From: Acidithiobacillus ferrooxidans ATCC 23270
Lineage (GTDB): Bacteria > Pseudomonadota > Gammaproteobacteria > Acidithiobacillales > Acidithiobacillaceae
Length of the DNA: 64,000 nt
Direction of reading: 5' to 3'
NCBI RefSeq assembly: GCF_000021485.1
Contig: NC_011761.1
Coordinates: forward strand, 898,001 to 962,000
Part shown: positions 14,630 to 61,899 of the stretch, piece after piece
Layout of the letters: each line of letters opens with the position of its first letter
Position numbering within the stretch: the first letter of the stretch is position 1
Translations under genes and position numbers: made by a program
The notes under the pieces: model-generated
The model's input: the letters and a program-made list of their open reading frames with translations, nothing else
What the model was told of the DNA's origin: nothing
The model's database searches: none

Positions 14630-14928
14630 AGGCCCTGCGCGATATCAGCTCCTTGACACCCCCGTCCGCCTGGGGCTACGCTGATTCCGTCACTGGGGTT
14701 CCAGTGATCGGGTTTGAGAGCCCGAAACAATCAGGCGGACAGCCGCCATTCCCTTACGGGAGTCGGCATTTTTTATGTCCGTGGTCCGGCGTTGCTCCTA
14801 TGGGCGGGCCGGACGGGGAGCCGAAAGGCTCGCCGGTGCCTGGTTGCCGGTCTCTCAACCCGTTCGGTTCCGTCCACCCTTGTGAGAGGGGGTTGGCGGG
14901 AAATAGACCGCAAACCAGGAGTTTGACC
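14630..14928 (+). promoter_or_regulatory. structured leader region, Ash/icd-like
   Basis: About 300 bp between the CII-like gene and the antirepressor contain many short inverted repeats, for example CACTGGGGTTCCAGTG (14692-14707) and GGGTTTGAGAGCCC. Overlapping frames read RHFLCPWSGVAPMGGPDGEPKGSPVPG and FYVRGPALL, which recall the poorly understood Ash family of P4-like elements. It may act as a structured RNA rather than as protein. The assignment is tentative. Confidence 0.4.
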
Positions 14929-27817: not shown

Positions 27818-28061
27818 CCAGGGGGCCGGAGTGATCCGGCAGACGTTTGCAACAGGTCGTTGAGACCCACTCCGGGATGCTTCCTCAGTCCCGGACACTG
27901 GAAGGTGAGAATCATGCTGGCGAAAGGGAAAGCGCCGAAGGTTCCAGCCGCCATCGCAAGATGGGAGCCGGTTGCAGACAACCCCGAGGGGAGATCGCTG
28001 CGCGGATAGTGCCCGCAAAGCGGCGTCACAAGCGCCCGTAAGGGCTTTGTAGGAGGTAGTC
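27810..28061 (+). ncRNA. omega-RNA (HEARO RNA) of IscB
   Basis: About 250 bases directly before iscB carry no gene but several paired segments, for example CCGGAGTGATCCGG (27826-27839) and GCGCCCGTAAGGGC near the end, and finish at the iscB ribosome site. Position, length and structure match the HEARO RNA that guides IscB. In known systems the guide lies at the 5' end and is copied from sequence flanking the left end, here the lipase gene. Boundaries are approximate. Confidence 0.7.
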
Positions 28062-29426
28062 ATGGCCGTATTGGTACTCGATAAAAGAAAGAAGCCGTTG
28101 ATGCCGTGCTCGGAGAAACGGGCGCGGCTGCTGCTGGAGCGTGGCCGGGCGCGGGTGCATCGCATGGTGCCGTTTACCATCCGGCTGGTGGATCGCTTGC
28201 AGGAAGATTCCACCTTGCAACCCGTCCGGCTCAAGCTCGACCCAGGTAGTAAAACAACCGGCATGGCTCTGGTTCGGGAACAGGAGTCTGTGGACGAAGA
28301 TACCGGCGAAATCCAGCGCAAGGCCATAGTGTTGATGCTGCTGGAGTTGCAGCATCGGGGCTATGCCATTCGCGACGCGCTCACCCAGAGGCGGGCTTTT
28401 CGGCGGCGGCGGCGCGGGAATCTGCGCTACCGTCCGGCCCGCTTCGACAATCGCGCCAAACCAGAAGGCCGTTTGGCTCCGAGCTTGCAGCACCGGGTCG
28501 ATACGACGATGGCTTGGGTGCAGAGGCTGTTGCGCTGGGCGCCGGTATCTGCCCTGTCCACCATGCTGCACCGCTTCGATACCCAGGCACTCCAGAATCC
28601 CGAGATCAGCGGGATCGAGTACCAGCGCGGCGAACTGTTTGGCTACGAGGTCCGCGAGTACCTATTGGAGAAGTGGGGCCGCAAGTGCGCCTACTGCGAT
28701 GCCCAGAATACCCCATTGACCATCGATCATATCCACCCCAGGAGCGCGGGCGGCTCGGATCGGGTATCGAATCTCACCCTGGCCTGTTTCCCCTGCAACC
28801 AGCGCAAGAGCAACCGGGACGTGCGGGAGTTTCTGGCGCACGACCCGAAACGTCTGACCCGCATCGAGGCAAGCCGCAAGGCACCCCTCAAGGACACCGC
28901 TGCCGTCAACAGTACCCGTTGGGCGCTTTGGCGGCAACTGGTGGCTACCGGTCTCGATGTCGAGGTCGGCACCGGCGGCAGGACGAAGTGGAATCGCAGT
29001 CGGCTACAAATCCCCAAAGAACATTGTCTGGACGCTGCCTGCGTGGGGCATGTCGATGGTCTCGAACACTGGCAGCAGCCGGTACTCGGTATCAAAGCGA
29101 CGGGGCGCGGAAGCTACCAGCGCACGCGGCTGACAAAGCACGGCTTCCCGCGTGGCTATCTCACCCGCAGCAAGAGTGCTTTCGGGTTCCAGACGGGCGA
29201 TATGGTCAAGGCGGTAGTGACGAAAGGCAAGAAGGTAGGCACCTATCTGGGCCGCGTTGCCATCCGGGCCAGCGGCAGCTTCAACATCCAGACCGGGAAC
29301 GGACTGGTGCAACACATCCATTACCGATTCTGCAAACTGGTTCAGCGCGGCGATGGTTACGGATACCACTGGTCGCTTCTCCACCCCGCGCTGAACCACG
29401 GGATTGCCGAAGCTGGGAGGAACTGA
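28062..29426 (+). CDS. iscB: IscB RNA-guided nuclease
   Basis: The product is 454 residues. Its parts in order are: the PLMP domain (KPLMPCSEKRARLLLERGRA, residues 11-30), RuvC-I with Asp60 in KLDPGSKTTG, an Arg-rich bridge helix (about 108-130), RuvC-II near Glu186, the HNH domain with zinc cysteines Cys209/212 and 242/245 and the DH pair at 222-223, and RuvC-III with His321 and Asp324. All catalytic residues appear present. IscB is the ancestor group of Cas9 and cuts double-stranded DNA chosen by the omega-RNA. GGAGG precedes the ATG. Confidence 0.92.
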   Translation: MAVLVLDKRKKPLMPCSEKRARLLLERGRARVHRMVPFTIRLVDRLQEDSTLQPVRLKLDPGSKTTGMALVREQESVDEDTGEIQRKAIVLMLLELQHRGYAIRDALTQRRAFRRRRRGNLRYRPARFDNRAKPEGRLAPSLQHRVDTTMAWVQRLLRWAPVSALSTMLHRFDTQALQNPEISGIEYQRGELFGYEVREYLLEKWGRKCAYCDAQNTPLTIDHIHPRSAGGSDRVSNLTLACFPCNQRKSNRDVREFLAHDPKRLTRIEASRKAPLKDTAAVNSTRWALWRQLVATGLDVEVGTGGRTKWNRSRLQIPKEHCLDAACVGHVDGLEHWQQPVLGIKATGRGSYQRTRLTKHGFPRGYLTRSKSAFGFQTGDMVKAVVTKGKKVGTYLGRVAIRASGSFNIQTGNGLVQHIHYRFCKLVQRGDGYGYHWSLLHPALNHGIAEAGRN

Positions 29427-33647: not shown

Positions 33648-35824
33648 TATCACCAACGTCGTCCGTTAAGATGGATTTTAATAGAATAGGATGGAACCAA
33701 TACGACCACCACTTGTCTTAGTTTTCATGGGAAAGAAACTGAGCGACTACGCCAAGGAGCGTGGCATTGGGTACCGCGCCGCCTGGAACCGTTTTAAGGC
33801 GGGCCGAATACCTGGCGCCTGGCTGGATGAAACCGGACATGTCGTCGTTCCCGACCCGTCCGAACGAAAAGGCACTAAGGCCGTGATCTATGCGCGGGTC
33901 TCTTCAGCCGAGAATCGACCCAACCTGGAGAGCCAAGCCGAACGACTGGGGCAGTACGCCACGGCACGAGGCTGGCAGGTGATCGAGGTCGTCAAGGAAA
34001 CCGGCAGCGGCGTCAATGATCATCGCAAAAAACTGGAGAAGCTACTGCAAAAATCCACAAATTGGGACATTCTGATTGTGGAACACAAGGACCGCCTGAC
34101 CCGCTTCGGTTTTCATTATATCGACACCCTTCTGAGCCAACTGGGGAAGCGGATCGAGGTGGTCAATCTAGCCGATAACGACAAAGAAGATCTGGTGCAG
34201 GACCTGGTGGCGGTCATCTATTCGTTCAGCGCCCGCATGTATGGACTTCGCCGCAGCAAGCGGCGCACCGAGCGGTTACTGGCCTGCCTGGAACAAGAAG
34301 CAGCAACCGTCGCCAGTGATCCAGGAGTGGTGGCATCATGATGCGCACCTACCCATACAGTCATGCGGCCAATGCCGTTAAAGAACGGCAGATATGGGAC
34401 GTGCTGCGCGCCTATCGGCAATCGGCGCAACGAATCGCCAATGACCAATGGAAGTCGTTATTCATTACTGGCAGCATGGAAAAAGACGGATCCATTTGTC
34501 CGGCTGACCATATCATCTCCAAACGGTATCTGCAGACCTGCCAGCGTCAGGTTGTCGGAGTCCTGAAGTCCTGGCTTTCCAATCGCAAAAATGATTTCAG
34601 GATGCTGGTGATCCATTCATCGCTTTGGAAGGACAAGACGGAAGACGGAGAACGTCTTCGTATTCAGTTACTTTTCATCAACAAGCACGGGCTTTGGTTT
34701 AAGGACCGCGTCGTCATGCGGAAAGAGGTTATTCCGGCACATGTGATGCGTTTGGCGCGTAATCTCTTCCGTCGGTTGATGAACAAACATAACAAGCCAT
34801 CCTTCCGGCATGTGGGTATGGCGCTGGATGCCAAAGTGGCCAGAGTGGAGGCACCCAATAAAGCGCACAGCGCAGAATTCCCTTACTGGCTGACTTTGGC
34901 TACTCTGAATCCGCGCAAGCCCATCCACATACCATTGCATGAAAACCCATACGCCCTGGCGGCGGACGGTGATGAAAAGGCTTTTGTGCAAATCAATGTG
35001 CGGCGAGGCACGGCCATAGCCGGACAACTCGGCGCATTGGATATCGCCCGCATCAAGGAATCTGCGCCGGTGTTTTCACTTGAACGCCCCAGGCCGCAGA
35101 TCGTAGATACGCTCGGCATCGACGTGGGTCTGAGAACGCTGGTAGCCACCAGCATGGGGGAATTGCTTGGGCGCAATCTGATCGATCGCTTGAGCCGTCT
35201 GGACGCGCAGATCTCCCGTCTGGCGGCCGAGCGCCAAAGACAAAGACTGCCCGTGCATTCACGGCGTTACGACACGTTGGTCAACCGGATGCGGTCTTTC
35301 CTCAAGAACGAAATCGGACGGGTGCTGAATGGGTTGTTTGCACGGGTACATCCGGCCAAAGTGGTGATTGAGTCCCTGGATTTCCGCAGCCCTGATTTGT
35401 CCAGGAGGCTCAATCGGCTGGTGCAGAACTTCGGGCGCACCTGGTTTCGTCAAAAGCTCGACATGCTCTCTGAGGAATATGGTTTTCTGGTCGAGGAAGT
35501 GCATGCGGCGTATAGCAGCCAGACGTGCAAATCCTGTGATTATGTGGCGAAGAATAACCGTTCTTCGCAGTCAAAGTTTCATTGCCGCTTTTGCGGCAGG
35601 AAAGCGCACGCCGATCCGAACGGAGCGGAAGTCATCCGGCAGAGACGTTCTCTGCCCGAGTACGCTCCGTGGAGATCGAAACGGCAAATCCTTCAGGCAA
35701 CGGTTGGCCGTTTCCTGAAGCGATGGACCGGGCGGTTGTCCGGCATGCAGGTCAATAGTGCCCTGCGTCTTGTTGTGGAAGGTAATCCCTATTTTGCGGA
35801 TCACCGGGCGGCCATTTGGCCGGG
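33648..35824 (+). mobile_element. IS607-family element (tnpA serine recombinase + tnpB)
   Basis: The boundaries are placed at GG dinucleotides at each side (33646-33647 and 35823-35824), the sort of core IS607 recombinases use. Removing the stretch restores one open SET-domain frame of about 304 codons. There is no target duplication. Ends were inferred by frame, not by comparison with an empty site. Confidence 0.7.
33727..34341 (+). CDS. tnpA: IS607-type serine recombinase (TnpA)
   Basis: The product is 204 residues. An N-terminal MerR-like helix-turn-helix (LSDYAKERGIGYRAAWNRFKAGRIPG) precedes a resolvase domain with the catalytic Ser in YARVSSAENRPNLESQ. This order is that of IS607 transposases, which move circular intermediates with little target specificity. 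The family usually starts at this ATG; one at 33691 is also in frame. The stop overlaps tnpB. Confidence 0.9.
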   Translation: MGKKLSDYAKERGIGYRAAWNRFKAGRIPGAWLDETGHVVVPDPSERKGTKAVIYARVSSAENRPNLESQAERLGQYATARGWQVIEVVKETGSGVNDHRKKLEKLLQKSTNWDILIVEHKDRLTRFGFHYIDTLLSQLGKRIEVVNLADNDKEDLVQDLVAVIYSFSARMYGLRRSKRRTERLLACLEQEAATVASDPGVVAS

Positions 35825-35843
35825 AAACACCACGACAGATTAA
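34338..35843 (+). CDS. tnpB: TnpB RNA-guided nuclease of the IS607 element
   Basis: The product is 501 residues. RuvC-I Asp is in TLGIDVGLRTLVATS, RuvC-II Glu in VVIESLDF, the zinc finger is CKSCDYVAKNN ... CRFCGRKAHAD, and RuvC-III Asp lies in HADPNGAEV. All are present. TnpB cuts DNA guided by an RNA made from the element's right end, with the guide copied from right-flank DNA. The last codons appear to run into flanking SET-gene sequence, so its C-terminus may be element-plus-host. It is coupled to tnpA by ATGA. Confidence 0.9.
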   Translation: MMRTYPYSHAANAVKERQIWDVLRAYRQSAQRIANDQWKSLFITGSMEKDGSICPADHIISKRYLQTCQRQVVGVLKSWLSNRKNDFRMLVIHSSLWKDKTEDGERLRIQLLFINKHGLWFKDRVVMRKEVIPAHVMRLARNLFRRLMNKHNKPSFRHVGMALDAKVARVEAPNKAHSAEFPYWLTLATLNPRKPIHIPLHENPYALAADGDEKAFVQINVRRGTAIAGQLGALDIARIKESAPVFSLERPRPQIVDTLGIDVGLRTLVATSMGELLGRNLIDRLSRLDAQISRLAAERQRQRLPVHSRRYDTLVNRMRSFLKNEIGRVLNGLFARVHPAKVVIESLDFRSPDLSRRLNRLVQNFGRTWFRQKLDMLSEEYGFLVEEVHAAYSSQTCKSCDYVAKNNRSSQSKFHCRFCGRKAHADPNGAEVIRQRRSLPEYAPWRSKRQILQATVGRFLKRWTGRLSGMQVNSALRLVVEGNPYFADHRAAIWPGNTTTD

Positions 35844-36254: not shown

Positions 36255-36934
36255 CTTCTCAGCCGCGCACCTGGCGGCATACTCTTCGCGCCGGTGCGAC
36301 GCCGGGCGATCCATGCGTTCCCAGCCGCACCCCTGGCGGCACACGAAGCGCCGATTTCCAGCATTCGGTCGCCCATCTTCCTATCCGCGCGTGTGGCGGC
36401 ATACAGCCCATACTGCCGTCGCCTCACTGACGCTCGTACTTTCAAACCGCGCAACTGGCGGTATACTAGGTTCTGTACTGTTTTTTTGCCAATACAAACT
36501 TCCCAGCCGCGCACCTGGCGGCACACAGCCACCGCGCGGAGTATTGCCCGGTGGACTTCTTCTCAGCCGCGCTTGGCGGCACGCTATCCGTTTTTTCTCC
36601 GGTATTGCCACCTTCTTCCCAACTGCACTGTGGCGGCACACGTTTACCGTATCCATGGCACGGACTATGAAAACTTCTCAGCCGCACACCTGGCGGCACA
36701 CCACCGGGGGCTGGCGGCCCCCAAAACTTCTCAGCCGCGCACCTGGCGGCACACCCCTAGCTCATCCCCTTCCGGGCCCTCTGCGTCTTCTCAGCCGCGC
36801 GTGTGGCGGCATACTGCGCAGTCAGGGCATCTGCAACTTGCGCGATCTTCTCAGCCGCGCGTGTGGCGGCATACCGCTGATCATCTTGGTAGACCGCGAC
36901 ATATCACTTCTCAGCCGCGCGTGTGGCGGCATAC
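36255..36934 (-). CRISPR. type IV-A CRISPR array 1 (12 repeats)
   Basis: Twelve copies of a 27-28-base repeat, on the minus strand GTATGCCGCCACACGCGCGG plus CTGAGAAG, recur about every 60 bases with 26-35-base spacers. On the plus strand they begin at about 36256, 36318, 36378, 36440, 36500, 36560, 36616, 36675, 36728, 36788, 36848 and 36908. The last three are identical and the others grow degenerate to the left, so the leader is on the right (36935-37087) and transcription runs leftward, away from dinG. Confidence 0.93.
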
Positions 36935-37087: not shown

Positions 37088-39319
37088 CTATTTCGGAGGA
37101 AACACGAACAGCTTCTTTTTTGGATACCCGTCCAGGATGGTTTTCACCGACTCCTGCCAGGATTCCATGTATGGCCAGGAACTCCAGGGCCGGCCATCGA
37201 GCATCCAGATGTCGATCTTTTGCATGTCGGGATGCCGAACAATGCGCCCGAGACCTTGCCGTAACATCATCAGAGACTCGTTGATAATCGGGCGTACGCT
37301 GGTTTTTTCGATGCGCTTCAGCATGGACAGGCTGCGATTCAGGCCGACTGGCGCGCAGGTCAGGATGAGCGTGGACAGAAGACGATCTTTATCGGGAGAA
37401 ACGCTCTTGTCGGTGAGATCGATGCCGGTCCATGCCGCGCCAGCCGCGATCAGGATGGGTTGGATTCCATTGGCGTAGAGCGCCCGGTATTGTTGTTCGG
37501 CGGAGGAGAAGCGGTTTTTCTCGCTCTGAATCACAATGCGTTCCGCAGGTATGCCAAGTTCCACCAAGCGCTGACCGATGGCAGAGGCATGCGAGAAAGC
37601 GACCGTGAGAATAACGGTTCCCCCGTGTTGTTTCTTGCGTAGAATCGCAGCGGTGCTCAATGAGAGGTTGTAAAGCCACAAATTCATGTCGCCTTGCTCG
37701 GTTTTGCCGACTGGGCGGGACAAAAGAAACGCCGCTTTGGCATTTGGAACATGCAGATGAGGAATGTTGCGGACCCACGGCGCCACAATGGGTGATGGCG
37801 TGTCCAGGCGAGACAGGGGAAGCGCGAGCACGCTTTTCAGATAGTCGCATTTCATCTGCCCGAAGCGGTCGGGAAGATAGAGCGTGGCCGAAGCGATAAT
37901 GGCGCCATGAGTTATGTCCTTCCAGATGCCGCCCAGCACCTTTCCCAAGTCCTCTCGTCCGGAGATGATCGACGGAAAGCGCCGGTCGGGAGAAAATTGC
38001 AGGTAGACCGTGCTCGCTTTTCCCTGGATGGCGGTTATGGCGTTATCCAGAATGAATCTGGCTTTTTTGACATCCTTGACGACGGAGAGCGCCTTTTTGT
38101 TGAGGGCGGCGTCGAGGTCGGAAAATAATGTCTCCAATTCCTTATTGCCGGCATCCAGGCAGAGTGTTTGCCCGTCGCCGACGTCCAGCGCGGATACCTG
38201 CTGGATGCAGTGGGACACGGCAGACACCGCCTTGCTCACGACAGAGCCTTTTCCGGCCCCGGTTTTTCTCTTGGAAACGTAGAGATGGAATCGCAACATG
38301 CGAAGGGAAAGCGCGTTGGAATATACGCGCGAGATATTCTGCTCGAAGAGATGACCTTCATCGACAATGAGTATATCCGGCTGTCCGAACAATCCCCACT
38401 TATCCCGGAAAGCCAGTCCCAGCATGGTGTGCGTGCAAAAAAGGATCCGGCTTTTGCGGGCATATTCCCGCGATTCCACCAGGCGCTTATCCTCATCGTC
38501 TTCGGTCACGAAATCTTGCGGGTTCAGGTTGGTGGCCAACGCCTTCAGGTCGTGCGTCATGTGGTGCATCTTGGTTGGCGCGCGGGACATGGCGCGGATC
38601 AGCGCGGCTTCATGTATCAGGGGGCCGCCCTGGCCCATCCAGAGCTGTACGGCAGGATCTTTGTCTCCGCTTTGGTCCAGGTATTCCTGGAGCTTTCCTG
38701 GATCGATGAATTCCTGGGATCCGGGGAAGAAGCCGGCTTGCACCCCGCCCGCCAACCCTTCAGCCGTCAACCGTTCCAGTTCAGACCAGAGATGGCCCAG
38801 CACAGCGAGAGTTGGCGCGGTAATCACGATCTTCTGCAGATCTGGCCGCTCTTTGGCCATGGTCAGGGCGGCCATAATCATGGCCCGAGATTTTCCAACG
38901 CCAGTGGATCCTTCCAGCATGCCGATGCGCTTTTGGCGCAGGGAGGTCAGGCAATTCCGATAAAACAACGCTTGCTCTTGGGACGCGCCGGAGAAGGGCG
39001 GCGGAGTGGTCAAGGCGAAAGCGGAGTTGAAAGCGTCGTGCTTGGCGCTGGTTTCCGCCAACCCTGCGGCACACAGCGTGGCGAATGTTTGCTGGAAAGA
39101 AAGGCTCAAGCTTTGGGCCGCCTCTTCGATCTTGGTGTGCTGCGCGGGGGAGAAGAACAGGCTTTTGCGCGGCAAACTCGCGATGTCCACCGCCGGCGGC
39201 CACCGTGTTGCTTCAACGTGAAGGCCGATGGCCACCAGGTTGCGGTACGTGTCGGTGATGTTGGTGGCCATGGCGTGGGCGTCGGGTACGGAGATGAGCG
39301 GGACTGTCACTGTGGGCAT
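37088..39319 (-). CDS. dinG: type IV CRISPR-associated DinG helicase
   Basis: The product is 743 residues. Superfamily 2 (XPD/DinG) helicase motifs are visible: Walker A GSTGVGKSRA, the DEGH box in ILIVDEGHLFEQN, IIASATLY and motif VI QGLGRIVRHPD. The N-terminal 110 residues are unique, as in type IV DinG proteins, and the Fe-S cysteines of ordinary DinG are not evident. In type IV-A systems this 5'-3' helicase is recruited by the crRNP to plasmid targets and is needed for interference without cutting. The ATG at 39319 has GAGGA upstream. Confidence 0.93.
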   Translation of the reverse strand: MPTVTVPLISVPDAHAMATNITDTYRNLVAIGLHVEATRWPPAVDIASLPRKSLFFSPAQHTKIEEAAQSLSLSFQQTFATLCAAGLAETSAKHDAFNSAFALTTPPPFSGASQEQALFYRNCLTSLRQKRIGMLEGSTGVGKSRAMIMAALTMAKERPDLQKIVITAPTLAVLGHLWSELERLTAEGLAGGVQAGFFPGSQEFIDPGKLQEYLDQSGDKDPAVQLWMGQGGPLIHEAALIRAMSRAPTKMHHMTHDLKALATNLNPQDFVTEDDEDKRLVESREYARKSRILFCTHTMLGLAFRDKWGLFGQPDILIVDEGHLFEQNISRVYSNALSLRMLRFHLYVSKRKTGAGKGSVVSKAVSAVSHCIQQVSALDVGDGQTLCLDAGNKELETLFSDLDAALNKKALSVVKDVKKARFILDNAITAIQGKASTVYLQFSPDRRFPSIISGREDLGKVLGGIWKDITHGAIIASATLYLPDRFGQMKCDYLKSVLALPLSRLDTPSPIVAPWVRNIPHLHVPNAKAAFLLSRPVGKTEQGDMNLWLYNLSLSTAAILRKKQHGGTVILTVAFSHASAIGQRLVELGIPAERIVIQSEKNRFSSAEQQYRALYANGIQPILIAAGAAWTGIDLTDKSVSPDKDRLLSTLILTCAPVGLNRSLSMLKRIEKTSVRPIINESLMMLRQGLGRIVRHPDMQKIDIWMLDGRPWSSWPYMESWQESVKTILDGYPKKKLFVFPPK

Positions 39320-39391
39320 GTTTGCAAATCCTCGAAGATGGCTATAGACTAACAATAGTATATTTAATCTATCACGGCAACAGGGGTCATT
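39320..39391. promoter_or_regulatory. divergent dinG/csf1 control region with TAGTATATTT box, copy 2
   Basis: The 72-bp gap must hold both promoters. It contains the element-wide box TAGTATATTT (39356-39365), 26 bases before csf1. No good -35 was found on either strand, so an activator may be needed. Confidence 0.6.
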
Positions 39392-40141
39392 ATGCATCTC
39401 ACATCATCGGACATCGTCTGCATGGCCATGGGGCTGAAGCCAGAAGGCGCCTTGGCGCCGCATGAGGGCACCTGCTCCTTTTGCGGCAAAAATATCTGGC
39501 CCGGGGATCGATACACGAAATTTTCCGTAGGGCCATCCTTTATGGATGTTGCGGACTTGGCGGCAAGGGGATCCGGCATGACCTGCGGCCACTGCACTCC
39601 GCTGATGAGCAGCGCCATGTTACGCGCAACGGCCAACGGGATCTTTTCCGAGGGCGGCGTCCAGCCGTTTGCCAAATGGGTGGACGTGGCCCGTGGATTG
39701 TTGAACCCGCCGGAACCGCCCTTTGTGATGTTGTACGCCACCCGCAAGAGTCAACACATGGCCTGGCGGGCACGGGTCAACCTCAGTCGCGATCTGTTTT
39801 ATGTCCGCGTCGGCCTGCGGGATCTCAAGATTCGGCGGCCAGTCCTCCTATCGGCGGTGCAGGCTTGCCAAACTCTGGGCTCATTCATGGGGATCAAGCC
39901 TACCGCCAAGTCGCTCGCCCATCCGTTCGCCGTACTTTCCAGTGATCTAAAAGATCCGGCGCACAGCCTGCTGCGTCGGAAGGGCCCAGAAAAAACGCTG
40001 GATGAGGCGGCGGAGGCCTATCCGGAAGCCTATCAGTTGATCCAATCGCTCACCCTGGGTGAAACCTGGGCCATGCGGTTTCTGTTGTCCCCCAACGCCG
40101 GCGCACAAGCGGCGGCTCAATCCGAAGGAGCTTTGTCATGA
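39392..40141 (+). CDS. csf1: Csf1 (type IV large-subunit-like, Cas8-like)
   Basis: The product is 249 residues. A zinc-finger-like pair, CSFCGKNIWPGDRY and MTCGHCTPL, lies in the first 75 residues, the hallmark of Csf1. It takes the place of the large subunit in the type IV effector and may help in target recognition. AGGGG precedes the ATG. The stop overlaps csf2. Confidence 0.9.
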   Translation: MHLTSSDIVCMAMGLKPEGALAPHEGTCSFCGKNIWPGDRYTKFSVGPSFMDVADLAARGSGMTCGHCTPLMSSAMLRATANGIFSEGGVQPFAKWVDVARGLLNPPEPPFVMLYATRKSQHMAWRARVNLSRDLFYVRVGLRDLKIRRPVLLSAVQACQTLGSFMGIKPTAKSLAHPFAVLSSDLKDPAHSLLRRKGPEKTLDEAAEAYPEAYQLIQSLTLGETWAMRFLLSPNAGAQAAAQSEGALS

Positions 40142-41199
40142 TCAAGCGTTTTTCTGCGTTTATTCGTACCCGGTCCCCATTGCACATTGCCGCTCCCGGC
40201 AGCATGCGGTTTGATCCAGCCACGGGAAAGACCGTCTATGGCGGGCAGAGCGTTGGCGTGCCTTGTACGGGCATCCAGCGTGAAGTGTTGTTCAACGAAG
40301 CGGGCGAGGCGAAGCACTTTCCCGTGATCGCCGCCAACAACATCTCCGGCCGTCTGCGCCGGCATGCCGCGCGCATCATCCTGGAAGCGATCCGGTTGCG
40401 CGGGCAGAAGGTTTCCCTGGCGGTCTATAACGTCCTGCAGTGTGGCGCGGTAACGGGTAATCCGGATGGCAAAGACATGACCCTGGGCGAATACCGGCAG
40501 TATCGGGACGATCCCTACTTTGGGCTGTTCGGCGGCGGTCCGAAAATGATGCGGCGCTGCCTGGAAGTCGAAAACGCCTTGCCGGTTCACGCGGATACCA
40601 CGGCGAATCTGGGCAGCATGGCGCATCCACACGCTCACCGGCATGCCCAGGGCGATCACTTCACCGACGTCTGGGGCTTTCGCCGCAATGATGATTTGCG
40701 GGATCTGGTCAACATCCACCAGGCTGCGGAAGTGGTGGAGAACTTTGAGGCGGAATTCAATGCCCGGCAGCAGGCTATTTTGGGCGAGGTCGATCGCGAG
40801 AAAGGCTCCAGCAAGACCAGTGTGAAAACCTATTCGGCACTGGAGTTCGTGCGCCCGGGAACGCTGTTCGATTTTTCCATCCTGATGAAGTGGGCCATCA
40901 GCGATGCCCAGGCCGGCCTGTTTCTGCTCACCCTGGATAGCCTGGCGGAGACGGAGCGGCTGGGCGGATACGGGCGTAACGGATTCGGTCGCTTTTCGTT
41001 CGACGATGCGATCTTGTTGACCAGTGATGGGAAAGAACACCAGGATGCGTTCCACGATGGCCGCCTGAATCGCGAGGATCCTCTGGTGGCCCATACGCTT
41101 TCCGCCTGGCATGCCGCGTCTCAGAAAATCGACGCCACGGCGTTGGCCAACCTGATCGCCCCTGACCGGGGTGCGGCCCCTGACCGGGGTGCGGCGTGA
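40138..41199 (+). CDS. csf2: Csf2 (Cas7-like backbone protein)
   Basis: The product is 353 residues of the RAMP/Cas7 type: RTRSPLHIAAPG at the start, an internal RNA-binding region and glycine-rich ERLGGYGRNGFGRFSF near the end. Several copies would line the crRNA in the effector. The final codons come from an 18-bp tandem duplication (41161-41196), giving DRGAAPDRGAA. It is coupled to csf1 and csf3 by overlaps. Confidence 0.92.
   Translation: MIKRFSAFIRTRSPLHIAAPGSMRFDPATGKTVYGGQSVGVPCTGIQREVLFNEAGEAKHFPVIAANNISGRLRRHAARIILEAIRLRGQKVSLAVYNVLQCGAVTGNPDGKDMTLGEYRQYRDDPYFGLFGGGPKMMRRCLEVENALPVHADTTANLGSMAHPHAHRHAQGDHFTDVWGFRRNDDLRDLVNIHQAAEVVENFEAEFNARQQAILGEVDREKGSSKTSVKTYSALEFVRPGTLFDFSILMKWAISDAQAGLFLLTLDSLAETERLGGYGRNGFGRFSFDDAILLTSDGKEHQDAFHDGRLNREDPLVAHTLSAWHAASQKIDATALANLIAPDRGAAPDRGAA
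41161..41196 (+). repeat. 18-bp tandem duplication at the csf2/csf3 junction
   Basis: The unit CCTGACCGGGGTGCGGCC occurs at 41161-41178 and, with one base change at its end, at 41179-41196. It adds six codons to csf2, and its last base is the first base of the csf3 GTG. Confidence 0.9.
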
Positions 41200-41888
41200 A
41201 GCCGCTGGAAATCCGCTTCCGGCTGGCGACGCCGATGCTTGTCCATTCGGACCTGCCCTTTCATTTCGATGCGCTGATGGCTTATGCCGTCAGCCGGGAC
41301 AGTGAGATGAATGGCTCGGCGGATCCCTGGTTGGATGCGGAAGACCTGTCAGAAATCCTGGGTCGGGAAGGCGAGGGAGATTCCTGGGTCTGGCAGGCCT
41401 CCAGAATGGAGGTCTTGGCCAGACTCCCTTACCCGAAGATCTATGAATCCGCCAACAACCTGCGGTTCACCGATCCATCACGGTTTTACGATGATCTGGA
41501 CCGGGGGTTGTGGCAGCCGCGCGGAAAAGTGAATCCGGAGACCTTCCGGATCGATCCCAATAGCGGCCAGCAACGCGGGTACCAGATGTATCTGACGACA
41601 TCCAACGCGCAGGAGGTCGCCTTTTATGTGATCGGCGAGGAGGAAGCCATCCGCTTTTATCTCTCGCAGGTGACCCATCTGGGGAAAGGCAGCAAGAACG
41701 GGTATGGACGCATTTCCAACGCGGAAATTCGGGACTGCCCGGAGGCCGCCGACCGGTGGCGCAAACGCTGGCTCCACAAAGATATGCCGGGGGCCGATGG
41801 CGTGGAGTACGCCCCGGTCATGGGGCGGTTGCGTCAACCTTATTGGGACAAGGCGCATTTTCATCCGGTCTTGGAACCGGTCAGATAA
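41196..41888 (+). CDS. csf3: Csf3 (Cas5-like protein)
   Basis: The product is 230 residues. The pattern (RFRLATPMLVHSDLPFHFDALMAYA at the N-terminus and LGKGSKNGYGRISNAEI later) matches Csf3, a RAMP of the Cas5 role that binds the 5' handle of the crRNA. The GTG start overlaps the csf2 stop. Confidence 0.9.
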   Translation: MKPLEIRFRLATPMLVHSDLPFHFDALMAYAVSRDSEMNGSADPWLDAEDLSEILGREGEGDSWVWQASRMEVLARLPYPKIYESANNLRFTDPSRFYDDLDRGLWQPRGKVNPETFRIDPNSGQQRGYQMYLTTSNAQEVAFYVIGEEEAIRFYLSQVTHLGKGSKNGYGRISNAEIRDCPEAADRWRKRWLHKDMPGADGVEYAPVMGRLRQPYWDKAHFHPVLEPVR

Positions 41889-41900
41889 GGGGGCTTTCCG

Positions 41901-42068
41901 ATGGATTCAGAGACCTGGACGGATAGAAAGACCGCCATAATGGCGGCGAAGCGTTATCTGCGGCAAAAGCGACAGGAGCGCTGCCGCGATAGAGGTCGGT
42001 GGGTTGGCGGGGCGACGGCAATGCTCGCCATTGGCGTGATCCTTGTAAAGTTAAGGAGGCATTTGTGA
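41901..42068 (+). CDS. 55-residue membrane-anchored peptide inside the csf operon
   Basis: The frame opens with ATG and GGGGG 8 bases upstream, and its TGA overlaps the GTG of csf5. The peptide has a basic, Arg/Lys-rich first 36 residues and one hydrophobic segment (GGATAMLAIGVILVKL) near the C-terminus. I know of no such standard type IV component. The tight packing between csf3 and csf5 supports translation. Confidence 0.6.
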   Translation: MDSETWTDRKTAIMAAKRYLRQKRQERCRDRGRWVGGATAMLAIGVILVKLRRHL

Positions 42069-42628
42069 AGGCGCTCAAATATATCGACATCCATATTCAC
42101 CAGGGCCGGGACAGTCAGATACCCACGGCGCATGGCGCCAGCAATCTGCAGGCGCTGCTGGACGTGTTGCACGGGGCATTCGTGGAATTTCCAGGGACCT
42201 TCGCCCTGGCATTCCCCGATGTTCAGGTGGGCGAGTTCCGGCACCCCGGGCGACGCGTGCGGATCTTTGCGGAGGATGCGGAATCGCTCTGTGGGCTTCG
42301 CACCTTGGTGGATCATTCCGACAGCCTGGATTTTCGGGTGAAGGTGAAGGGTGACGTGCAGGAAGTGCCGGCGGATTTCGCTGGGCCATGGGTGGAATAC
42401 CGACGGTTCCGGATTCCAGGAAAGACATCGCGCAGGCCGGAGTTTCGGGCGGCGCGGATCGAAAAGGCCGACACGTTGCCATATATTGGTGTTCATAGCC
42501 GGAGCACGGATCAGTATTTTGTGGTGTACATCGATCCGATCCCGACGAATGGCCGCTTGGACGGTGTGCCGGGCGGCTATGGGTTGTCGGTCAGTTCCCG
42601 CGCGGTTTCCGTTCCGGATCTGCCGTAA
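42065..42628 (+). CDS. csf5: Csf5 / Cas6-like crRNA-processing protein
   Basis: The product is 187 residues from a GTG with AAGGAGG upstream. It sits where type IV-A loci encode the Cas6-like RNase (Csf5) that cuts the repeat hairpin to make crRNA. The terminal GRLDGVPGGYGLSVSSRAVSVPDLP is a plausible glycine-rich loop of a RAMP fold. The fold itself is too diverged for me to name catalytic residues. It is the last gene before array 2 on the same strand. Confidence 0.75.
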   Translation: MKALKYIDIHIHQGRDSQIPTAHGASNLQALLDVLHGAFVEFPGTFALAFPDVQVGEFRHPGRRVRIFAEDAESLCGLRTLVDHSDSLDFRVKVKGDVQEVPADFAGPWVEYRRFRIPGKTSRRPEFRAARIEKADTLPYIGVHSRSTDQYFVVYIDPIPTNGRLDGVPGGYGLSVSSRAVSVPDLP

Positions 42629-42763: not shown

Positions 42764-44681
42764 GTGTGCCGCCAGGTGCGCGGTTGAAAAGCAAAAAGGC
42801 TTGTATCTCGATGCGGCGACGGGGTGTGCCGCCAGGTGCGCGGTTGAAAAGGGGTCGCGCGCAATATTGATGTCGTAGTGGTATGCCGCCAGGTGCGCGG
42901 CTGGGAAGATATGACGCAGATCCGCGCGGGATCAGTATGCCGCCAGATGCGCGGCTGAGAAGAACGGCGACCTGACCTTCACCGGCTACTCCGTGTATAC
43001 CGCCATGTGTGCGGCTGAGAACAAAGCCAGCGCTGGTGAAGAAGGCCGCGCCAAGTATGTCGCCATGTGTGCGGCTGAGAACTTGGAGCAGGCGATGGCC
43101 TGCAAAATACTTGCAGTATGCCGCCAGGGGCGCGGCTGGGAAGAGGGGGCCAAATCCACATCCACGTCGTCCTTACGCGACGTATGCCGCTACATGCGCG
43201 GTTGGAAATAGTAAATCCCCTCATTTATTCCCCCTAGTATGCCGCCATGTGCGCGGCTGGAAAGGGTTTGGCGCATTCCGCGCTGAGTAGAGACGACGTA
43301 TGCCGCCATATGCGCAGCTTGTAATGTGCCGCGCTTGATCGCAGTTGCCGTGTATTGTGTGCCGCCATGTGCGCGGCTGGGAAGATTTCTTCGAACACGA
43401 ACGGGTCTAACTGACGATGTGCCGCCATCACGCGGTTGGGAAGGAGAGCCAGATCGGTTGGTTCAATCGCCATGAGTATGCCGCCATGTGTGCGGCTGGA
43501 AAGGCCCCTCCAGCGGGGCGGCTTTTTTGTGGGATGTATGCCGCCAGGTGTGCGGCTTAAAAAGTAGTGATTTAATCGACGAAGGCGCAAGGACACGTAT
43601 GCCGCCAGGTGCGCGGCTGAGAATGGCGGCGGCAATAAGACGCTCAAGCGCGGCTGAGAAGACGAAAACGGGGGGCCCAAAGCGCAACCGCAGGGAAAGT
43701 ATGCCGCCAGGTGTGCCGCTATGGGCGCGGCTTGGAAGATTTCGCCGGTTGAGGGAATAGAGGGTGAGGCGTATGCCGCCATGTGTGCGGGTGGAAACGC
43801 GTCTTCTGATCCGCCGAAATTATCGTATGCCGCCATAGGTGCGGTTGGGAAGAAGCATCAGAGAGACCTAGATGGATTTCGGTATGCCGCCAGATGCGTG
43901 GTTGAGAAGTTGCTGATCCTGACTTTTCTGGACCAGTGATCGTATGCCGCCAGGTGCGCGGCTTAAAAAGGCTCAAAGTGCTCGTCAAAGACCGGGAGAG
44001 GTGTGCCGCCGTGGGTGCGTGCGGTTGGGAAGTGGCATGAGGCTCGCCTGCCGAGCCCCAAGTTTGCCGCCATGTGTGTGGCTGGAAAGACATGGAATCT
44101 GGTCATGGTAGGCAGGTCGAAATATGCCGCCAGATGTGCGGCTGGAAAGGCGCTGGAAAATCGATCGCGGTGATTGGAACGGTATGCCGCCAGGGGTGCG
44201 GATGAGAAGAACAACGATCCGGTCTACGGCTCTTATAACCGGTGTGCCGCCATGTGCGCGGCTGGGAAGTACGGGGCAAAGTCACGCGCCTTGCGGCTCG
44301 TGTATGCCGCCAGGTGCGCGGCTGGAAAGGAACGTATCCCGCCGACGAGCACAACAAATCGGTATGCCGCTAGGCACGCGGCTGGGAAGTTCCGGGCCTC
44401 GTGCCCGATTTCTTTTGTGTATGCCGCCATGCGCGCGGCTTGGAAGTGCACAGGCAAAACGAGACGGAAGCGATTGTCGTATGCCGCCATGTGTGCGGCT
44501 TAGAATGCGCCCCGCGACCGGGATTTTCACCCGTTCGTATATGTCGCCATGTGAGCGGCTGAGAAGAGCCAGCGCATTTACACGGCCTAAGCTATTAACG
44601 TGTGCCGCCAGAAGCGTGGCTTGGAAGAGATCGGTGGCGCTAACACCGATGACACTATGCCGCCAGATGCGCGGCTGATTT
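42764..44681 (+). CRISPR. type IV-A CRISPR array 2 (about 33 degenerate repeats)
   Basis: Repeats of the form GTATGCCGCCAGGTGCGCGG plus CTGGGAAG (27-28 bases) recur about every 60 bases with mostly 32-33-base spacers. The first two (42764, 42824) are identical GTGTGCC variants. The last (44655) has lost its end (CTGATTT). Copy 16 is cut to about 13 bases (43648-43660), and copy 17 (43699-43737) has 12 extra bases. Repeats vary in the loop and the tail but keep GCCGC...GCGGC. Polarity is plus, away from csf5. Confidence 0.95.
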
Positions 44682-44705
44682 TGTTGCAAATTGGGTGGAT
44701 ATAGG

Positions 44706-45344: not shown

Positions 45345-45788
45345 ATGTCCGCCAGCGTGGACAAGGTGTTATCCCTGCTTCCCAAGTACCGGAAATTCGG
45401 CCCTGGGAAGTGGATGGCGATTTGTCCTGCACACGATGATCGTCATCCTTCACTTTCCATACGGGAGGCGGAGGATGGCAAAGTGCTGATGCACTGTTGG
45501 GCGGGGTGTTCCGTGGAACAAATCGTTAACGCATTAAACCTTTCCATGGTGGATCTGTTTGAAGATTCCGCCAGAGATTTTCGTGGGGAGACCAGTGGAG
45601 TTGGCTCGCTGCGCAAATCCTTTGACTACCGGGACGCCTTGACCGGCGTGTCCCAGGAAGCGACGGCCGTTATGTTGATCGCGTCGGAAATCATTCATTC
45701 TGGATCTATCAAACCCCATCATTATGACCGGTTGCGCAAGGCGGAATCGCTCATTTCTGATGCCTTAGCCGTCGCAGGGGGGCGCTAA
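45345..45788 (+). CDS. primase-type zinc-finger (CHC2-like) protein
   Basis: The product is 147 residues. WMAICPAHDDRHPSLSIREAEDGKVLMHCWAGCSVEQI is the zinc-binding domain of DnaG-type primases (C-H-C-C ligands). The TOPRIM catalytic part is absent, so it cannot be a full primase. It may bind DNA and work with another enzyme. The stop overlaps the helicase ATG (TAATG). Confidence 0.8.
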   Translation: MSASVDKVLSLLPKYRKFGPGKWMAICPAHDDRHPSLSIREAEDGKVLMHCWAGCSVEQIVNALNLSMVDLFEDSARDFRGETSGVGSLRKSFDYRDALTGVSQEATAVMLIASEIIHSGSIKPHHYDRLRKAESLISDALAVAGGR

Positions 45789-47923
45789 TGCCCGAAATGC
45801 AGACGCTCATCGGCCAGGTCACCCGCCTTATCTTCTCAGGCAAGGCGGATTCCTTTCGCATTTTTGAGGTGCAGATCAAGGGCGCGAACAAGCGCGAGAT
45901 TGTCACCGGCGAGTGGCAACGGGCCCGTGTGGGCGCGAACATCGAAGCGGCGGGAACCTGGGAGAAGCGCAAAGGAAAGGATGAAATTCAGTTCAAAGCC
46001 CGTTCTATTCTGGAAATCGTACCGACAAGCGCCGACAGCATTTTGTCTTGGCTTGAGGGCGGGGCGGTAAAGGGCATTGGCAAGGTGTCCGCGAAAAAGC
46101 TGGTGGCCTGCTTCGGCGCTGGATTGCTGGAGATTCTGGACCAGCATCCAGAACGGATCGTGGAGGCCGGTATCGGCAAGAAACAGCGCGAAAAGATTAT
46201 CGAGGGCTGGAAAATCGCGTCCGCCACCAGAATCATCATGCAGTTTCTTCGGGAAGTCGGGATTGGCCCGGAACGCTCCAACGCGGTATGGCGCCAGTTC
46301 AAGGATCACCCCGCCATCGCTGGCCAGCCGGCGGTGCTGGTGGCCCGGCTGCGCAACAACCCCTATCGCCTGATCCGCGTGCGCGGCATCGGGTTCTCGT
46401 TGGCCGACCAGGCGGCCGGCAAACTGGGCATTCGCGCCGACGCGGATTATCGGGTGGACGCGGGGATCGAGCACACTCTGCAAACTCGCACCGAAGACGG
46501 TCACGTTTGGACTCCCGAGCCGACGTTGCTGGGCCTTTGCAAAGAATTGCTGGGCGTCAGCCAGGAAAAGATCGTGGCGCGCATCCAGGTGATGCAGGAA
46601 GCACAGCAGATCGCGACTGAACTGGGCGCGCCTAATCGCTTCGCCAGCGTACGTCTTTCCAGAATGGAAATTTCCCTGGCGGCCAAGATTCGCTCCCTGT
46701 CTGGTCCGGCGCCCAAGAAAACGATGCGCTTCCCCGCCGGATTCGTTCCGGATCCCACGCAAATCGAGGCGCTGAACCAGATCAGCGATCGCAAGCTGGC
46801 GATTCTGGCCGGCGGGCCAGGCATGGGAAAGACCACCCTACTCAAGACCTGCGCACAGTCGGCAGTGGCGAGCGGCATGAGGGTTGCTCTTTGCGCCCCA
46901 ACCGGCCGTGCGGCCAAACGCATGAACGAGGCGACGGGCATGGAGGCCAAGACCATTCATCGGCTGTTGGAGATGAAGAGGGGTGGGCTGGCGGAGCGTA
47001 ATCGGGACAACCCTATCGAAGCGGACTGGATCATCGTGGACGAGGTCTCCATGCTGGATATGGAGTTGGCCTGGAAGCTGTTTGACGCCATTCCGGCCCG
47101 TGCCCGCGTGCTGCTGGTCGGCGATCCGGACCAGTTGCCTTCCGTGGGCCCCGGGCAAGTTCTGGCCGATCTCATTGCCTGCGGCAAGGTTACGGTGGCC
47201 AGGTTGAGCAAGATCTTCCGGCAGCAAGCCGGGTCCGGTATTCCGGTGATGGCCACCCAGGTCATTCAGGGCGTCGTGCCGAACCTGGATCCCGATTCGT
47301 CGGATTGTCCGTTCGTGGATGCAGAATGCATCGGGGAAGAAAGCGAGGAGGCGACAGCGGTGGTGGTGCGGCGCATCGTCCAAGAGTCGGAAAAACTGGG
47401 CAGCCGCATGCAGGCGCTGGCGCCCATGCGGAACGGTCCGCTGGGCACGCTGAAGCTCAACCAGGCCTTGCGTGAGGCGTTCAACCCGGATGCCGGGCAG
47501 CCGCACCGGGGCCGGTTCCGGCTGGGGGACTGGGTAATTCAGACGCGCAACAACTACGACCTGGATGTCTATAACGGCGATCTGGGTACCGTGGTGGCCA
47601 TAGAGGAGGGCGACGAACAGGCCGTGGTGGTGGATTTCGAGGATCGCGTCGTCCGCTATGAGGATAATGAGGACTTGCGGGATCTTGATCACGCGTATTG
47701 CCTGACCATCCACAAGTCCCAGGGTGGCCAGTTTCCCGGGGTCGCCATGGTGGCCACTACCGCGCACTTTGTCATGCTCAAGCGCAATCTGCTGTACACG
47801 GGCATGACGCGGGCCGAGAAGCATCTGCTGCTGATCTCGACGAAAAGGGCCCTGCAGATCGCGTGTAAGAAATCCGGCATTGAGAAGCGGGACACGCTGT
47901 TGGCCCAGAGGATCGGCGGATGA
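45788..47923 (+). CDS. RecD2-type 5'-3' DNA helicase
   Basis: The product is 711 residues. The N-terminal region of helix-hairpin-helix-like segments (about 60-330) precedes SF1B helicase motifs: Walker A GGPGMGKTTL, DEVSML (motif II), VGDPDQLPSVGPG (motif III), and TIHKSQGGQFPGVAMV near the end. This matches RecD2/TraA-like enzymes. It probably works in element replication or transfer and is coupled to the primase-type zinc protein. Confidence 0.92.
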   Translation: MPEMQTLIGQVTRLIFSGKADSFRIFEVQIKGANKREIVTGEWQRARVGANIEAAGTWEKRKGKDEIQFKARSILEIVPTSADSILSWLEGGAVKGIGKVSAKKLVACFGAGLLEILDQHPERIVEAGIGKKQREKIIEGWKIASATRIIMQFLREVGIGPERSNAVWRQFKDHPAIAGQPAVLVARLRNNPYRLIRVRGIGFSLADQAAGKLGIRADADYRVDAGIEHTLQTRTEDGHVWTPEPTLLGLCKELLGVSQEKIVARIQVMQEAQQIATELGAPNRFASVRLSRMEISLAAKIRSLSGPAPKKTMRFPAGFVPDPTQIEALNQISDRKLAILAGGPGMGKTTLLKTCAQSAVASGMRVALCAPTGRAAKRMNEATGMEAKTIHRLLEMKRGGLAERNRDNPIEADWIIVDEVSMLDMELAWKLFDAIPARARVLLVGDPDQLPSVGPGQVLADLIACGKVTVARLSKIFRQQAGSGIPVMATQVIQGVVPNLDPDSSDCPFVDAECIGEESEEATAVVVRRIVQESEKLGSRMQALAPMRNGPLGTLKLNQALREAFNPDAGQPHRGRFRLGDWVIQTRNNYDLDVYNGDLGTVVAIEEGDEQAVVVDFEDRVVRYEDNEDLRDLDHAYCLTIHKSQGGQFPGVAMVATTAHFVMLKRNLLYTGMTRAEKHLLLISTKRALQIACKKSGIEKRDTLLAQRIGG

Positions 47924-60885: not shown

Positions 60886-61899
60886 TTGGGCCACTGTAGT
60901 AACCAGCGGATTCACCATGGAAATGTCCTTGCGATAGCCGTCGCGACGACGTTTATTGGTTTGTGCCTGTCGTTCTGCGGACCCGATGTCGCTCAGGCTA
61001 ATGTGCTTTCCGGCGACACACACGGCTGGTTTTGGTACCAATTGCCACCTCCACCGCCCAAGCCACTGCCACCACCCAGACCCGTGGTGCAGGCACCGCC
61101 AAAACCCGCTCCGGTGAAGAAGGTCGCGCCCAAACCGGCGGGACCGAAGGTCTTTTCGGTGCAGTGGATTAAAAAAACATTGCCCAAATGGAGAAATCGG
61201 GCGATCAACGACCCAAGCACCAAGAATGTCACGCAATACTTGGCGTTGCAGAAGGTCATGTTCGATAAGGCCCAGAATTTCGCAGAGCGATTCGTCCAAG
61301 TCGCCAACACGAATCCGGTGCTCAATTATTCCGCGATCATTCCACGATCCGGCGCAGGCAATACGGATTTCCAGTCCTATTTGCAGCAGAATAAAATGCG
61401 GGCACTGCGCTATTTGAGCAAACACGTCGGGATGTGGGTGTTCGTGAAGCATGGATGCCCGTTTTGCGACATGCAGTTGACGCAGTACGGCAATATGAAC
61501 CAGATGATCCATTTCGCTACTGACTATATCGACGTGAATAACGGGCCGATTACGGGTCTACCGAAAAATGCGGTGCTTGTGCAGGATCATGGCCAGGCGA
61601 AGGATTTGCACCTGGTCGAGACCCCGACCATCATCATGATTTATCCGCCCGATAATTTTGCGATTATCGCGCAGGGTTACCAGGTCATGGGCAGCCTCGA
61701 GGACAATATCCTGGCGGACGCCGAGTATCTGCATCTCTTGCCGAAAAAGCTCACGGAATGGACCGGGGCCAATGCATATGAGCGCGGAGTGCTGACCACG
61801 GCACAGATGAAGCAAGCGCAGAACCAGAAAAACGCGAACCCGCAGACCATTACGCAGTACATCGAAAACGCCACGGCATCCAGAATCTCAAATTGGTGA
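60886..61899 (+). CDS. traF: TraF-like conjugal transfer protein (thioredoxin fold)
   Basis: The product is 337 residues from a TTG with AGGGA upstream. A signal sequence ends near residue 39 (AQA-NV). A Pro/Lys-rich linker (about 52-88) is followed by a thioredoxin-like domain with CPFC at 191-194 and a cis-Pro in ETPTIIM. This matches TraF of F-type systems, which helps pilus assembly and disulfide formation. The linker DNA at 61100-61132 resembles a CRISPR spacer of array 2. Confidence 0.8.
   Translation: MGHCSNQRIHHGNVLAIAVATTFIGLCLSFCGPDVAQANVLSGDTHGWFWYQLPPPPPKPLPPPRPVVQAPPKPAPVKKVAPKPAGPKVFSVQWIKKTLPKWRNRAINDPSTKNVTQYLALQKVMFDKAQNFAERFVQVANTNPVLNYSAIIPRSGAGNTDFQSYLQQNKMRALRYLSKHVGMWVFVKHGCPFCDMQLTQYGNMNQMIHFATDYIDVNNGPITGLPKNAVLVQDHGQAKDLHLVETPTIIMIYPPDNFAIIAQGYQVMGSLEDNILADAEYLHLLPKKLTEWTGANAYERGVLTTAQMKQAQNQKNANPQTITQYIENATASRISNW

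What the first reader, a model, noticed from the sequence alone, without database searches (positions are those of the whole stretch)
43022..43054. A spacer of array 2 is a diverged copy of the element's own traF-like gene
The spacer after the fifth repeat aligns without gaps to 61100-61132 in the traF-like linker: 27 of 33 bases match, including 11 in a row (GGTGAAGAAGG). Four of the six mismatches fall at third codon positions of the traF frame. That pattern is expected if the spacer was taken from a homologous gene in a related conjugative element, not by chance. It suggests that this type IV system targets competing conjugative elements while the host copy escapes by mismatches.
Basis: partly seen in the sequence, partly recalled or inferred. 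Interest (0 to 1): 0.82.

Follow-up and report, generated by a model that had tools for sequence, protein, structure and literature searches.

The report
CRISPR spacer resembling its own traF
A CRISPR guide sequence in a bacterial conjugative element resembles, better than chance, part of that element's own DNA-transfer gene traF, perhaps because it was copied from a rival relative's version of the gene, although no exact source could be found.

Summary
The match is real: spacer 43023-43054 fits 61101-61132 inside traF (60886-61899) at 26 of 32 bases (27 of 33 with repeat base 43022). The window lies in ICEAfe1 of Acidithiobacillus ferrooxidans ATCC 23270, which carries a known type IV-A CRISPR system. 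Only 14 of 79,994 natural 32-mers match the window this well, none of them beside a 5'-CC. Five other spacers of the two arrays have good protospacers in relatives, nearly all preceded by 5'-CC, a type I-F-like PAM; the traF site has it too (GCC). The traF reading gains support but stays unproven: no protospacer was found in the collections searched; the stretch is Lys/Pro/Ala low complexity; unrelated genes match equally well in far larger searches; codon phasing alone has P = 0.10; TraF linkers of relatives have diverged. The wider claim, rivalry with conjugative elements, rests better on two other spacers (30/32 and 28/32) that hit one Sak4-like gene about 6 kb from Dot/Icm-type conjugation genes in another genus of the family; whether that gene belongs to the conjugative element or to phage-like DNA beside it is open. 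Verdict: observation confirmed, interpretation partly supported, known kind of system.

The parts
43023..43054 (+). spacer A2_05, 32 nt, the spacer of the finding
61101..61132 (+). traF linker stretch matching the spacer at 26 of 32
61098..61100 (+). GCC directly 5' of the match: the PAM-like flank also seen at other protospacers of these arrays
60886..61899 (+). traF, 337 aa (PF13728, E 1.5e-65); AFE1066 in PMC6370655
42764..44682 (+). CRISPR array 2: 28-nt repeats, mostly 32-nt spacers, beside cas6
36256..36934 (-). CRISPR array 1, diverging from the cas operon
37088..39397 (-). DinG/Csf4 helicase of type IV-A
39392..40141 (+). Csf1 (Cas8-like)
40138..41199 (+). Csf2 (Cas7)
41196..41888 (+). 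Csf3 (Cas5)
41999..42628 (+). Cas6 of the Csy4/Cas6f kind
36345..36376 (-). spacer A1_10: 30 of 32 to a Sak4-like gene on a contig with conjugation genes (G025:C23:76363), 5'-GCC
44210..44241 (+). spacer A2_24: 28 of 32 to the same gene (G025:C23:76207), 5'-ACC, encoded peptide identical
44090..44121 (+). spacer A2_22: 30 of 32 to a Toprim primase gene (G013:C113), 5'-GCC, both mismatches synonymous
36283..36316 (-). spacer A1_11: 26-28 of 34 just 5' of a CHC2 primase gene in small integrated elements, 5'-GCC at 6 of 7 loci
43504..43535 (+). spacer A2_13: 24-27 of 32 at 7 loci, at 6 of them about 10 bases from the A1_11 site (terminator-like sequence), 5'-GCC at 6 of 7

Best explanation
A2_05 is an ordinary interference spacer of the type IV-A arrays carried by ICEAfe1. 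Spacers are inferred to have been added in trans by a type I-F Cas1-Cas2/3 complex, which selects 5'-CC flanked DNA (inferred; the own genome has no I-F cas1 match). The source was most likely a traF allele of a related F-type conjugative element, closer to ICEAfe1 than any sequenced relative found here (inferred). The crRNA would guide the Csf complex and DinG to repress that rival's pilus-assembly gene. ICEAfe1's own traF keeps the PAM but differs at six positions, including guide position 4, so it should not be bound effectively. Shown here: the match, its excess over chance, the common 5'-CC flank, and two sister spacers aimed at one gene on a contig with conjugation genes. Not shown: the actual traF protospacer, acquisition, expression, interference.
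For: Match and controls. Of 875 Lys/Pro/Ala-coding 32-mers, most of them from loci selected for the very motif, 2 reach 26 against the linker, both overlapping in one locus. 201 spacers (duplicates included) from arrays of relatives reach at most 72% identity (23 of 32) against 324 kb of ICE and flank. 5'-CC at protospacers of five other spacers and at traF. I-F PAM is upstream 5'-CC (PMC12174588, passages). The array beside I-F cas1 in relative G009 has 28-nt repeats at 60-base spacing ending GGCGGCTTAGAAG. I-F cas1 over cut-off in 3 of 31 genomes of the order, no match in the own genome. In A2_22 and A2_24 all mismatches leave the encoded peptide unchanged, the divergence pattern expected when only a relative of the true target is sampled.
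Against: No traF protospacer in the collections searched. Low-complexity site: about 130 bases of 64 kb, an unlikely place for a homologous hit and a likely one for convergence. Relatives' TraF linkers 17-22 of 39 identical, and at DNA level at most 20 of 33, mostly 18-19. Whole-genome BLAST E 0.075. The best match met in any search is an IMG/VR contig at 27 of 32 without CC. Scanned at 74% or more, no other spacer hit the fetched TraF-bearing contigs of five relatives. A1_04 has a 23 of 25 match with flank GCT, against CC. Other cas1 families were not searched.
Confidence: 0.57

Rival explanations
1. Convergent low complexity: the spacer came from an unrelated gene (phage, plasmid or satellite) encoding a Lys/Pro/Ala-rich stretch, and resembles the traF linker only because both encode K-P-A-x-V-K-K-x-A-P with similar codons.
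For: 28 loci among 84,980 species genomes and one viral contig encode the motif; none of the 29 shows similarity to the TraF domain, and 5 of the 29 match the spacer at 26 of 32. Random synonymous codons for the spacer's own peptide reach 26 against the linker in 6.5% of 20,000 cases. Codon-phased mismatches are expected here too.
Against: Hits to the pattern, which was written after seeing traF, are rare (28 in the genome collection) while this one is in the same 64 kb. Of 875 Lys/Pro/Ala-coding 32-mers only 2 reach 26, and of 20,000 random K/P/A/V sequences none. The 5'-GCC flank is not required by this model.
Confidence: 0.32
2. Self-acquired spacer: taken from ICEAfe1's own traF or an identical copy, after which spacer and gene drifted apart.
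For: The match is to the own element. Repeats differ from their consensus by 3.6 of 28 bases on average, so array DNA can change.
Against: A2_22, older if the leader lies beside cas6, still matches a relative at 30 of 32 with only synonymous differences, so spacers here do not seem to drift that fast.
Confidence: 0.05
3. Regulatory self-targeting: the crRNA deliberately represses the ICE's own traF, like the pilN-targeting crRNA of the Pseudomonas oleovorans type IV-A system.
For: Precedent for natural targeting of a host pilus gene by type IV-A (PMC11656645, passages). The PAM-like flank is intact. With overexpressed crRNA only mismatches at positions 1-3 reduced CRISPRi in IV-A1 (PMC11519345, passages).
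Against: Six mismatches with one at position 4; single mismatches at guide positions 1-5 abolished CRISPRi at basal crRNA levels in IV-A1 (same passages).
Confidence: 0.04
4. Plain chance.
For: Own-genome BLAST E 0.075. A similar 26 of 32 match occurs in relative G017 without a CC flank.
Against: 14 of 79,994 natural 32-mers, 0 of 79,994 with CC.
Confidence: 0.02

Closest known systems
Type IV-A CRISPR-Cas of ICEAfe1 (subject of Moya-Beltran et al. 2021, CRISPR J; not held, not read)
   Same: This is that very locus: ICE at 909149-1200493 with a type IV system (PMC10322971, passages).
   Different: Whether that paper already lists the traF-like spacer, the Sak4-like target or the CC flank could not be checked.
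Type IV-A1 (Pseudomonas oleovorans / P. aeruginosa) and IV-A3
   Same: Csf1-3, DinG, Cas6, array; arrays aimed at mobile elements; seed-dependent CRISPRi (PMC11519345 and PMC11656645, passages).
   Different: The PAM given for P. oleovorans A1 and for A3 is 3'-TTN-5' on the target strand (AAN), and AAG by survey; a P. aeruginosa study used a TTC flank (PMC8175902, passages). Protospacers found here carry 5'-CC.
Type I-F CRISPR-Cas
   Same: Upstream 5'-CC PAM (PMC12174588, passages); 28-nt repeats at 60-base spacing as in the I-F array of G009; Csy4-like Cas6.
   Different: The cas operon here is csf-type and the genome has no I-F cas1 match. Cas3 was not searched for.

Membership tests
Type IV-A CRISPR-Cas | csf1, csf2, csf3, dinG/csf4 and a cas6 next to a CRISPR array | tested here: met
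Type IV-A CRISPR-Cas | carried on a conjugative or plasmid-like element | tested here: met
   tRNA-Ala att repeats at 909180 and 1200449; TraF, TraH and transglycosylase genes; T4SS list in PMC6370655 (passages)
Type IV-A CRISPR-Cas | spacers aimed at conjugative elements | tested here: inconclusive
   A1_10 and A2_24 hit a gene about 6 kb from DotI, DotH, TrbI-like, DotM and coupling-protein genes on one contig, but phage-like regulators lie beside it and no relaxase was seen among the proteins scanned; other targets are integrase-primase elements
Type IV-A CRISPR-Cas | 5'-AAN/AAG PAM reported for A1 and A3 | tested here: not met
   flanks are 5'-CC; a consensus PAM has not been found in all IV-A systems and may reflect the acquiring machinery (PMC8175902, passages), so this is not a defining feature of the family as a whole
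Spacer derived from a traF homologue | perfect or near-perfect protospacer in a traF gene | tested here: not met
   none found; only the own copy at 26 of 32
Spacer derived from a traF homologue | PAM of the array at the matching site | tested here: met
   GCC at 61098-61100
Type I-F-like acquisition in trans | I-F cas1 available to the array | tested here: inconclusive
   no match in own genome, over cut-off in 3 of 31 genomes of the order
Type IV-A CRISPR-Cas | crRNA-guided, DinG-dependent repression | not testable with these tools
   needs experiment

The most novel reading that the evidence does not exclude
The ICEAfe1 type IV-A system is a 'borrowed I-F' variant: I-F-style repeats, 32-nt spacers and 5'-CC PAM, filled in trans by I-F adaptation machinery, and used in a feud between conjugative elements with two different transfer machines, its own F-type relatives (traF) and an I/Dot-type element of a neighbouring genus (Sak4-like gene hit twice).
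Probability: 0.42. Interest if true: 0.58.

Novelty: new member of a known kind. Interest (0 to 1): 0.4.

Why it matters
If right, this locus gives an inferred PAM for an ICE-borne type IV-A system that differs from the AAN/AAG reported elsewhere, two independent spacers on one gene near a rival conjugation system, and a plausible spacer against a pilus-assembly gene whose host copy escapes. That makes ICE-versus-ICE exclusion in Acidithiobacillus directly testable. Type IV-A anti-plasmid function itself is already known.

Tried and rejected
Rejected as targets of A2_05: plasmid and phage BLAST hits (48 and 24 records at E up to 10, 30 and 24 listed; the lowest E-value is a 22-base exact run in Sinorhizobium hflX, 22 of 32 over the spacer, flank AGT); IMG/VR L084 (27 of 32, flank GAA, five mismatches in the first 12 positions) and L083 (22 of 32), both; G017 L096 (26 of 32, flank CAG). 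The IMG/VR scans need an exact 18- or 19-base seed or the traF codon frame, so a protospacer with scattered mismatches in another frame would be missed.

Not counted among the five convincing spacers when inferring the 5'-CC flank, although seen: A1_04 at 23 of 25 (hairpin-like, flank GCT, against CC), A1_07 at 25 of 32 (flank ATG), A1_10 at 25 of 32 in L094 (flank TCC). Counted as exceptions in the 6 of 7: A2_13 in L188 (flank GAC) and A1_11 in L107 (flank GCT). L030 and L082, L086/L119 and L178, and L090 and L109 hold the same sites and were counted once.

A1_05 has a 23 of 32 match with GCC on the minus strand at 29721 in an M50 peptidase frame: nine mismatches, several in the seed, judged chance. 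A2_11 has 22 of 31 with ACC elsewhere on G025:C23: judged not significant over 43 spacers.

Searches of viral contigs for relatives of the Sak4-like gene, the Toprim primase and TraF gave no relative. Plasmid tblastn with TraF: 1463 records, every best place under 60% identity. Class-wide TraF search: 27 of 369 genomes with a match including the own, none outside the genus above 33% identity; none of 43 spacers hit those loci at 75% or more.

Full report
What the window is. The genome holding the window has 2,982,397 bases in one contig and the window is 898001-962000 of it. An att repeat of the tRNA-Ala end occurs at 909180 and 1200449, and PMC10322971 (passages) lists an ICE of A. ferrooxidans ATCC 23270 at 909149..1200493 with a type IV CRISPR-Cas system. 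PMC6370655 (passages) lists AFE1066 traF with 337 aa, the size of the frame at 60886-61899 (PF13728, E 1.5e-65). So this is ICEAfe1. The cas operon is type IV-A by profile: DinG/Csf4, Csf1, Csf2, Csf3 and a Csy4-like Cas6. Two arrays flank it, array 1 at 36256-36934 (minus) and array 2 at 42764-44682 (plus). I cut 43 spacers from them, two of these from a disordered stretch.

The observation. The alignment is as described. The spacer is 32 nt (43023-43054); base 43022 belongs to the repeat. In the traF frame the spacer would encode KPALVKKAAP against KPAPVKKVAP.

Is it chance? Shuffles of the 32-mer never reach 26 in the window (0 of 1000 dinucleotide, 0 of 1000 plain). Against 324 kb of ICE and flank, A2_05 is first of 43 spacers (z 7.2). 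Natural 32-mers of the same chromosome reach 26 in 14 of 79,994 cases, and none of 79,994 does so next to a 5'-CC (the 32-mers overlap, so they are not independent). 201 spacers (duplicates included) cut from arrays of relatives reach at most 72% identity against the same DNA. Because the site is Lys/Pro/Ala low complexity I also conditioned on that: 2 of 875 natural Lys/Pro/Ala-coding 32-mers (both in one locus) and 0 of 20,000 random K/P/A/V sequences reach 26 against the linker, while 6.5% of 20,000 random codings of the spacer's own peptide do. On the other side stand whole-genome BLAST E 0.075 and the codon phasing, which alone has P 0.10.

Is there a better target? None was found: plasmids and phages, 31 genomes of the order at up to 3 mismatches, two exact-seed scans and one codon-degenerate scan of IMG/VR, and one codon-degenerate scan of 84,980 species genomes. 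The last gave 28 loci; with the one IMG/VR locus 29 were read. By their residues they are Lys/Pro/Ala-type stretches, none of the 29 frames or loci is similar to the TraF domain while five relatives' TraF are, and 5 match the spacer at 26 of 32. TraF was found in 6 of 17 genomes of the genus counting the own and one fragment. In the five longer homologues aligned, four at 61-66% identity and one at 37%, the linker keeps 17-22 of 39 residues, and the best DNA match to the spacer in those loci is 20 of 33, mostly 18-19.

What do the other spacers say? Searching both arrays in the 31 genomes and scanning the fetched loci gave five spacers with convincing sites. A1_10 (30 of 32) and A2_24 (28 of 32) lie 124 bases apart in one gene of G025:C23, an AAA_24 / Sak4-like annealing protein. 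It sits beside a CI-like repressor and an anti-repressor, and about 6 kb from the first of a run of DotI, DotH, TrbI-like, TrbN-like, DotM and coupling-protein genes. I read the contig as carrying a conjugative element of the I/Dot type; but no relaxase was among the proteins scanned, and the phage-like regulators leave open that the Sak4-like gene belongs to a neighbouring prophage (of 10 proteins given to PHROGs, 4 matched, none structural). A2_22 (30 of 32) lies in a Toprim primase gene beside an integrase-like and a D5-like gene. A1_11 (26-28 of 34, 7 loci) and A2_13 (24-27 of 32, 7 loci) occur together, about 10 bases apart, in 6 loci; where annotated (L182, L184) these are small integrase, CHC2-primase, ATPase or DUF3987 elements. 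Mismatches of A2_22 and A2_24 leave the peptide unchanged, and A1_10 has one replacement.

PAM. Bases 5' of these sites: GCC (A1_10), ACC (A2_24), GCC (A2_22), GCC at 6 of 7 loci (A1_11; one GCT), GCC at 6 of 7 loci (A2_13; one GAC). A hairpin-like hit of A1_04, 23 of 25, has GCT and speaks against. The traF site has GCC. This is the type I-F PAM (PMC12174588, passages) and differs from the AAN/AAG reported for IV-A1 and IV-A3 (PMC11519345, passages), though one P. aeruginosa study used a TTC flank and a PAM has not been found in all IV-A systems (PMC8175902, passages). The array beside I-F cas1 in relative G009 has 28-nt repeats at 60-base spacing with the same 3' end style, and I-F cas1 is over cut-off in 3 of 31 genomes of the order but not found in the own genome (other cas1 families not searched). 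Acquisition in trans by I-F machinery is therefore my inference; a plasmid-borne type IV system has been shown to use a host I-E system this way (PMC11656645, passages).

Mechanism. Published IV-A1 work shows that mismatches at guide positions 1-5 abolish CRISPRi at basal crRNA levels, only 1-3 when crRNA is overexpressed. The own traF mismatches the guide at positions 4, 7, 10, 12, 24 and 31, so it should escape, with that caveat and the caveat that the data are from another IV-A system. The PAM result came from other spacers, so its presence at traF is independent support. It is partly discounted because a proline codon, common in such linkers, supplies the CC.

Weighing. A homologous hit would be unlikely to fall in the 130-base linker of a 64 kb window; a convergent one would be drawn to it. 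Against that, even Lys/Pro/Ala-coding DNA seldom matches this well, and the PAM fits. I put the traF-allele origin at a little over one half and unrelated Lys/Pro/Ala origin at about one third.

Literature limits. Moya-Beltran et al. 2021, the paper on this very system, is not held and was not read; its title was seen in reference lists. I therefore make no claim that any of this is unpublished. Paper searches: (listings).

Noticed in passing
42764-44682: 28 aligned repeats of array 2 differ from their consensus by 3.6 of 28 bases on average. Variation sits mostly at a few columns (3, 12-14, 16, 21, 23-25, 28) while most others are nearly invariant, and adjacent repeats are only slightly more alike (p 0.012). 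Spacers nevertheless keep near-perfect matches, so the cause of the repeat diversity is unexplained.
   Followed up: partly
27767-29426: HEARO (omega-like) RNA at 27767-27998 directly upstream of an RRXRR+HNH protein (IscB-like) at 28062-29426.
   Followed up: no
33691-35843: Resolvase-family gene followed by a protein with a Cas12f/TnpB-type TNB domain, an IS607-like pair (the IS name is recalled).
   Followed up: no
45788-47923: 711-aa frame whose length equals that of AFE1047, listed as relaxase TraA in PMC6370655 (passages), but Pfam shows RecD2-type helicase domains (HHH_RecD2, AAA_19, SH3_13) and no relaxase domain, and PADLOC a type IV RecD model.
   Followed up: no
14796-14881: C4 antisense RNA family hit above threshold.
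   Followed up: no
43597-43711: Disordered part of array 2 with a truncated repeat inside a long spacer and two overlapping repeats.
   Followed up: no
L200 and L201 (G005:C712, G015:C144): Weak csf2-like and cas1 hits (both below cut-off) on the same contigs with arrays of GGGG-type repeats in two relatives, so other class 1 systems.
   Followed up: no
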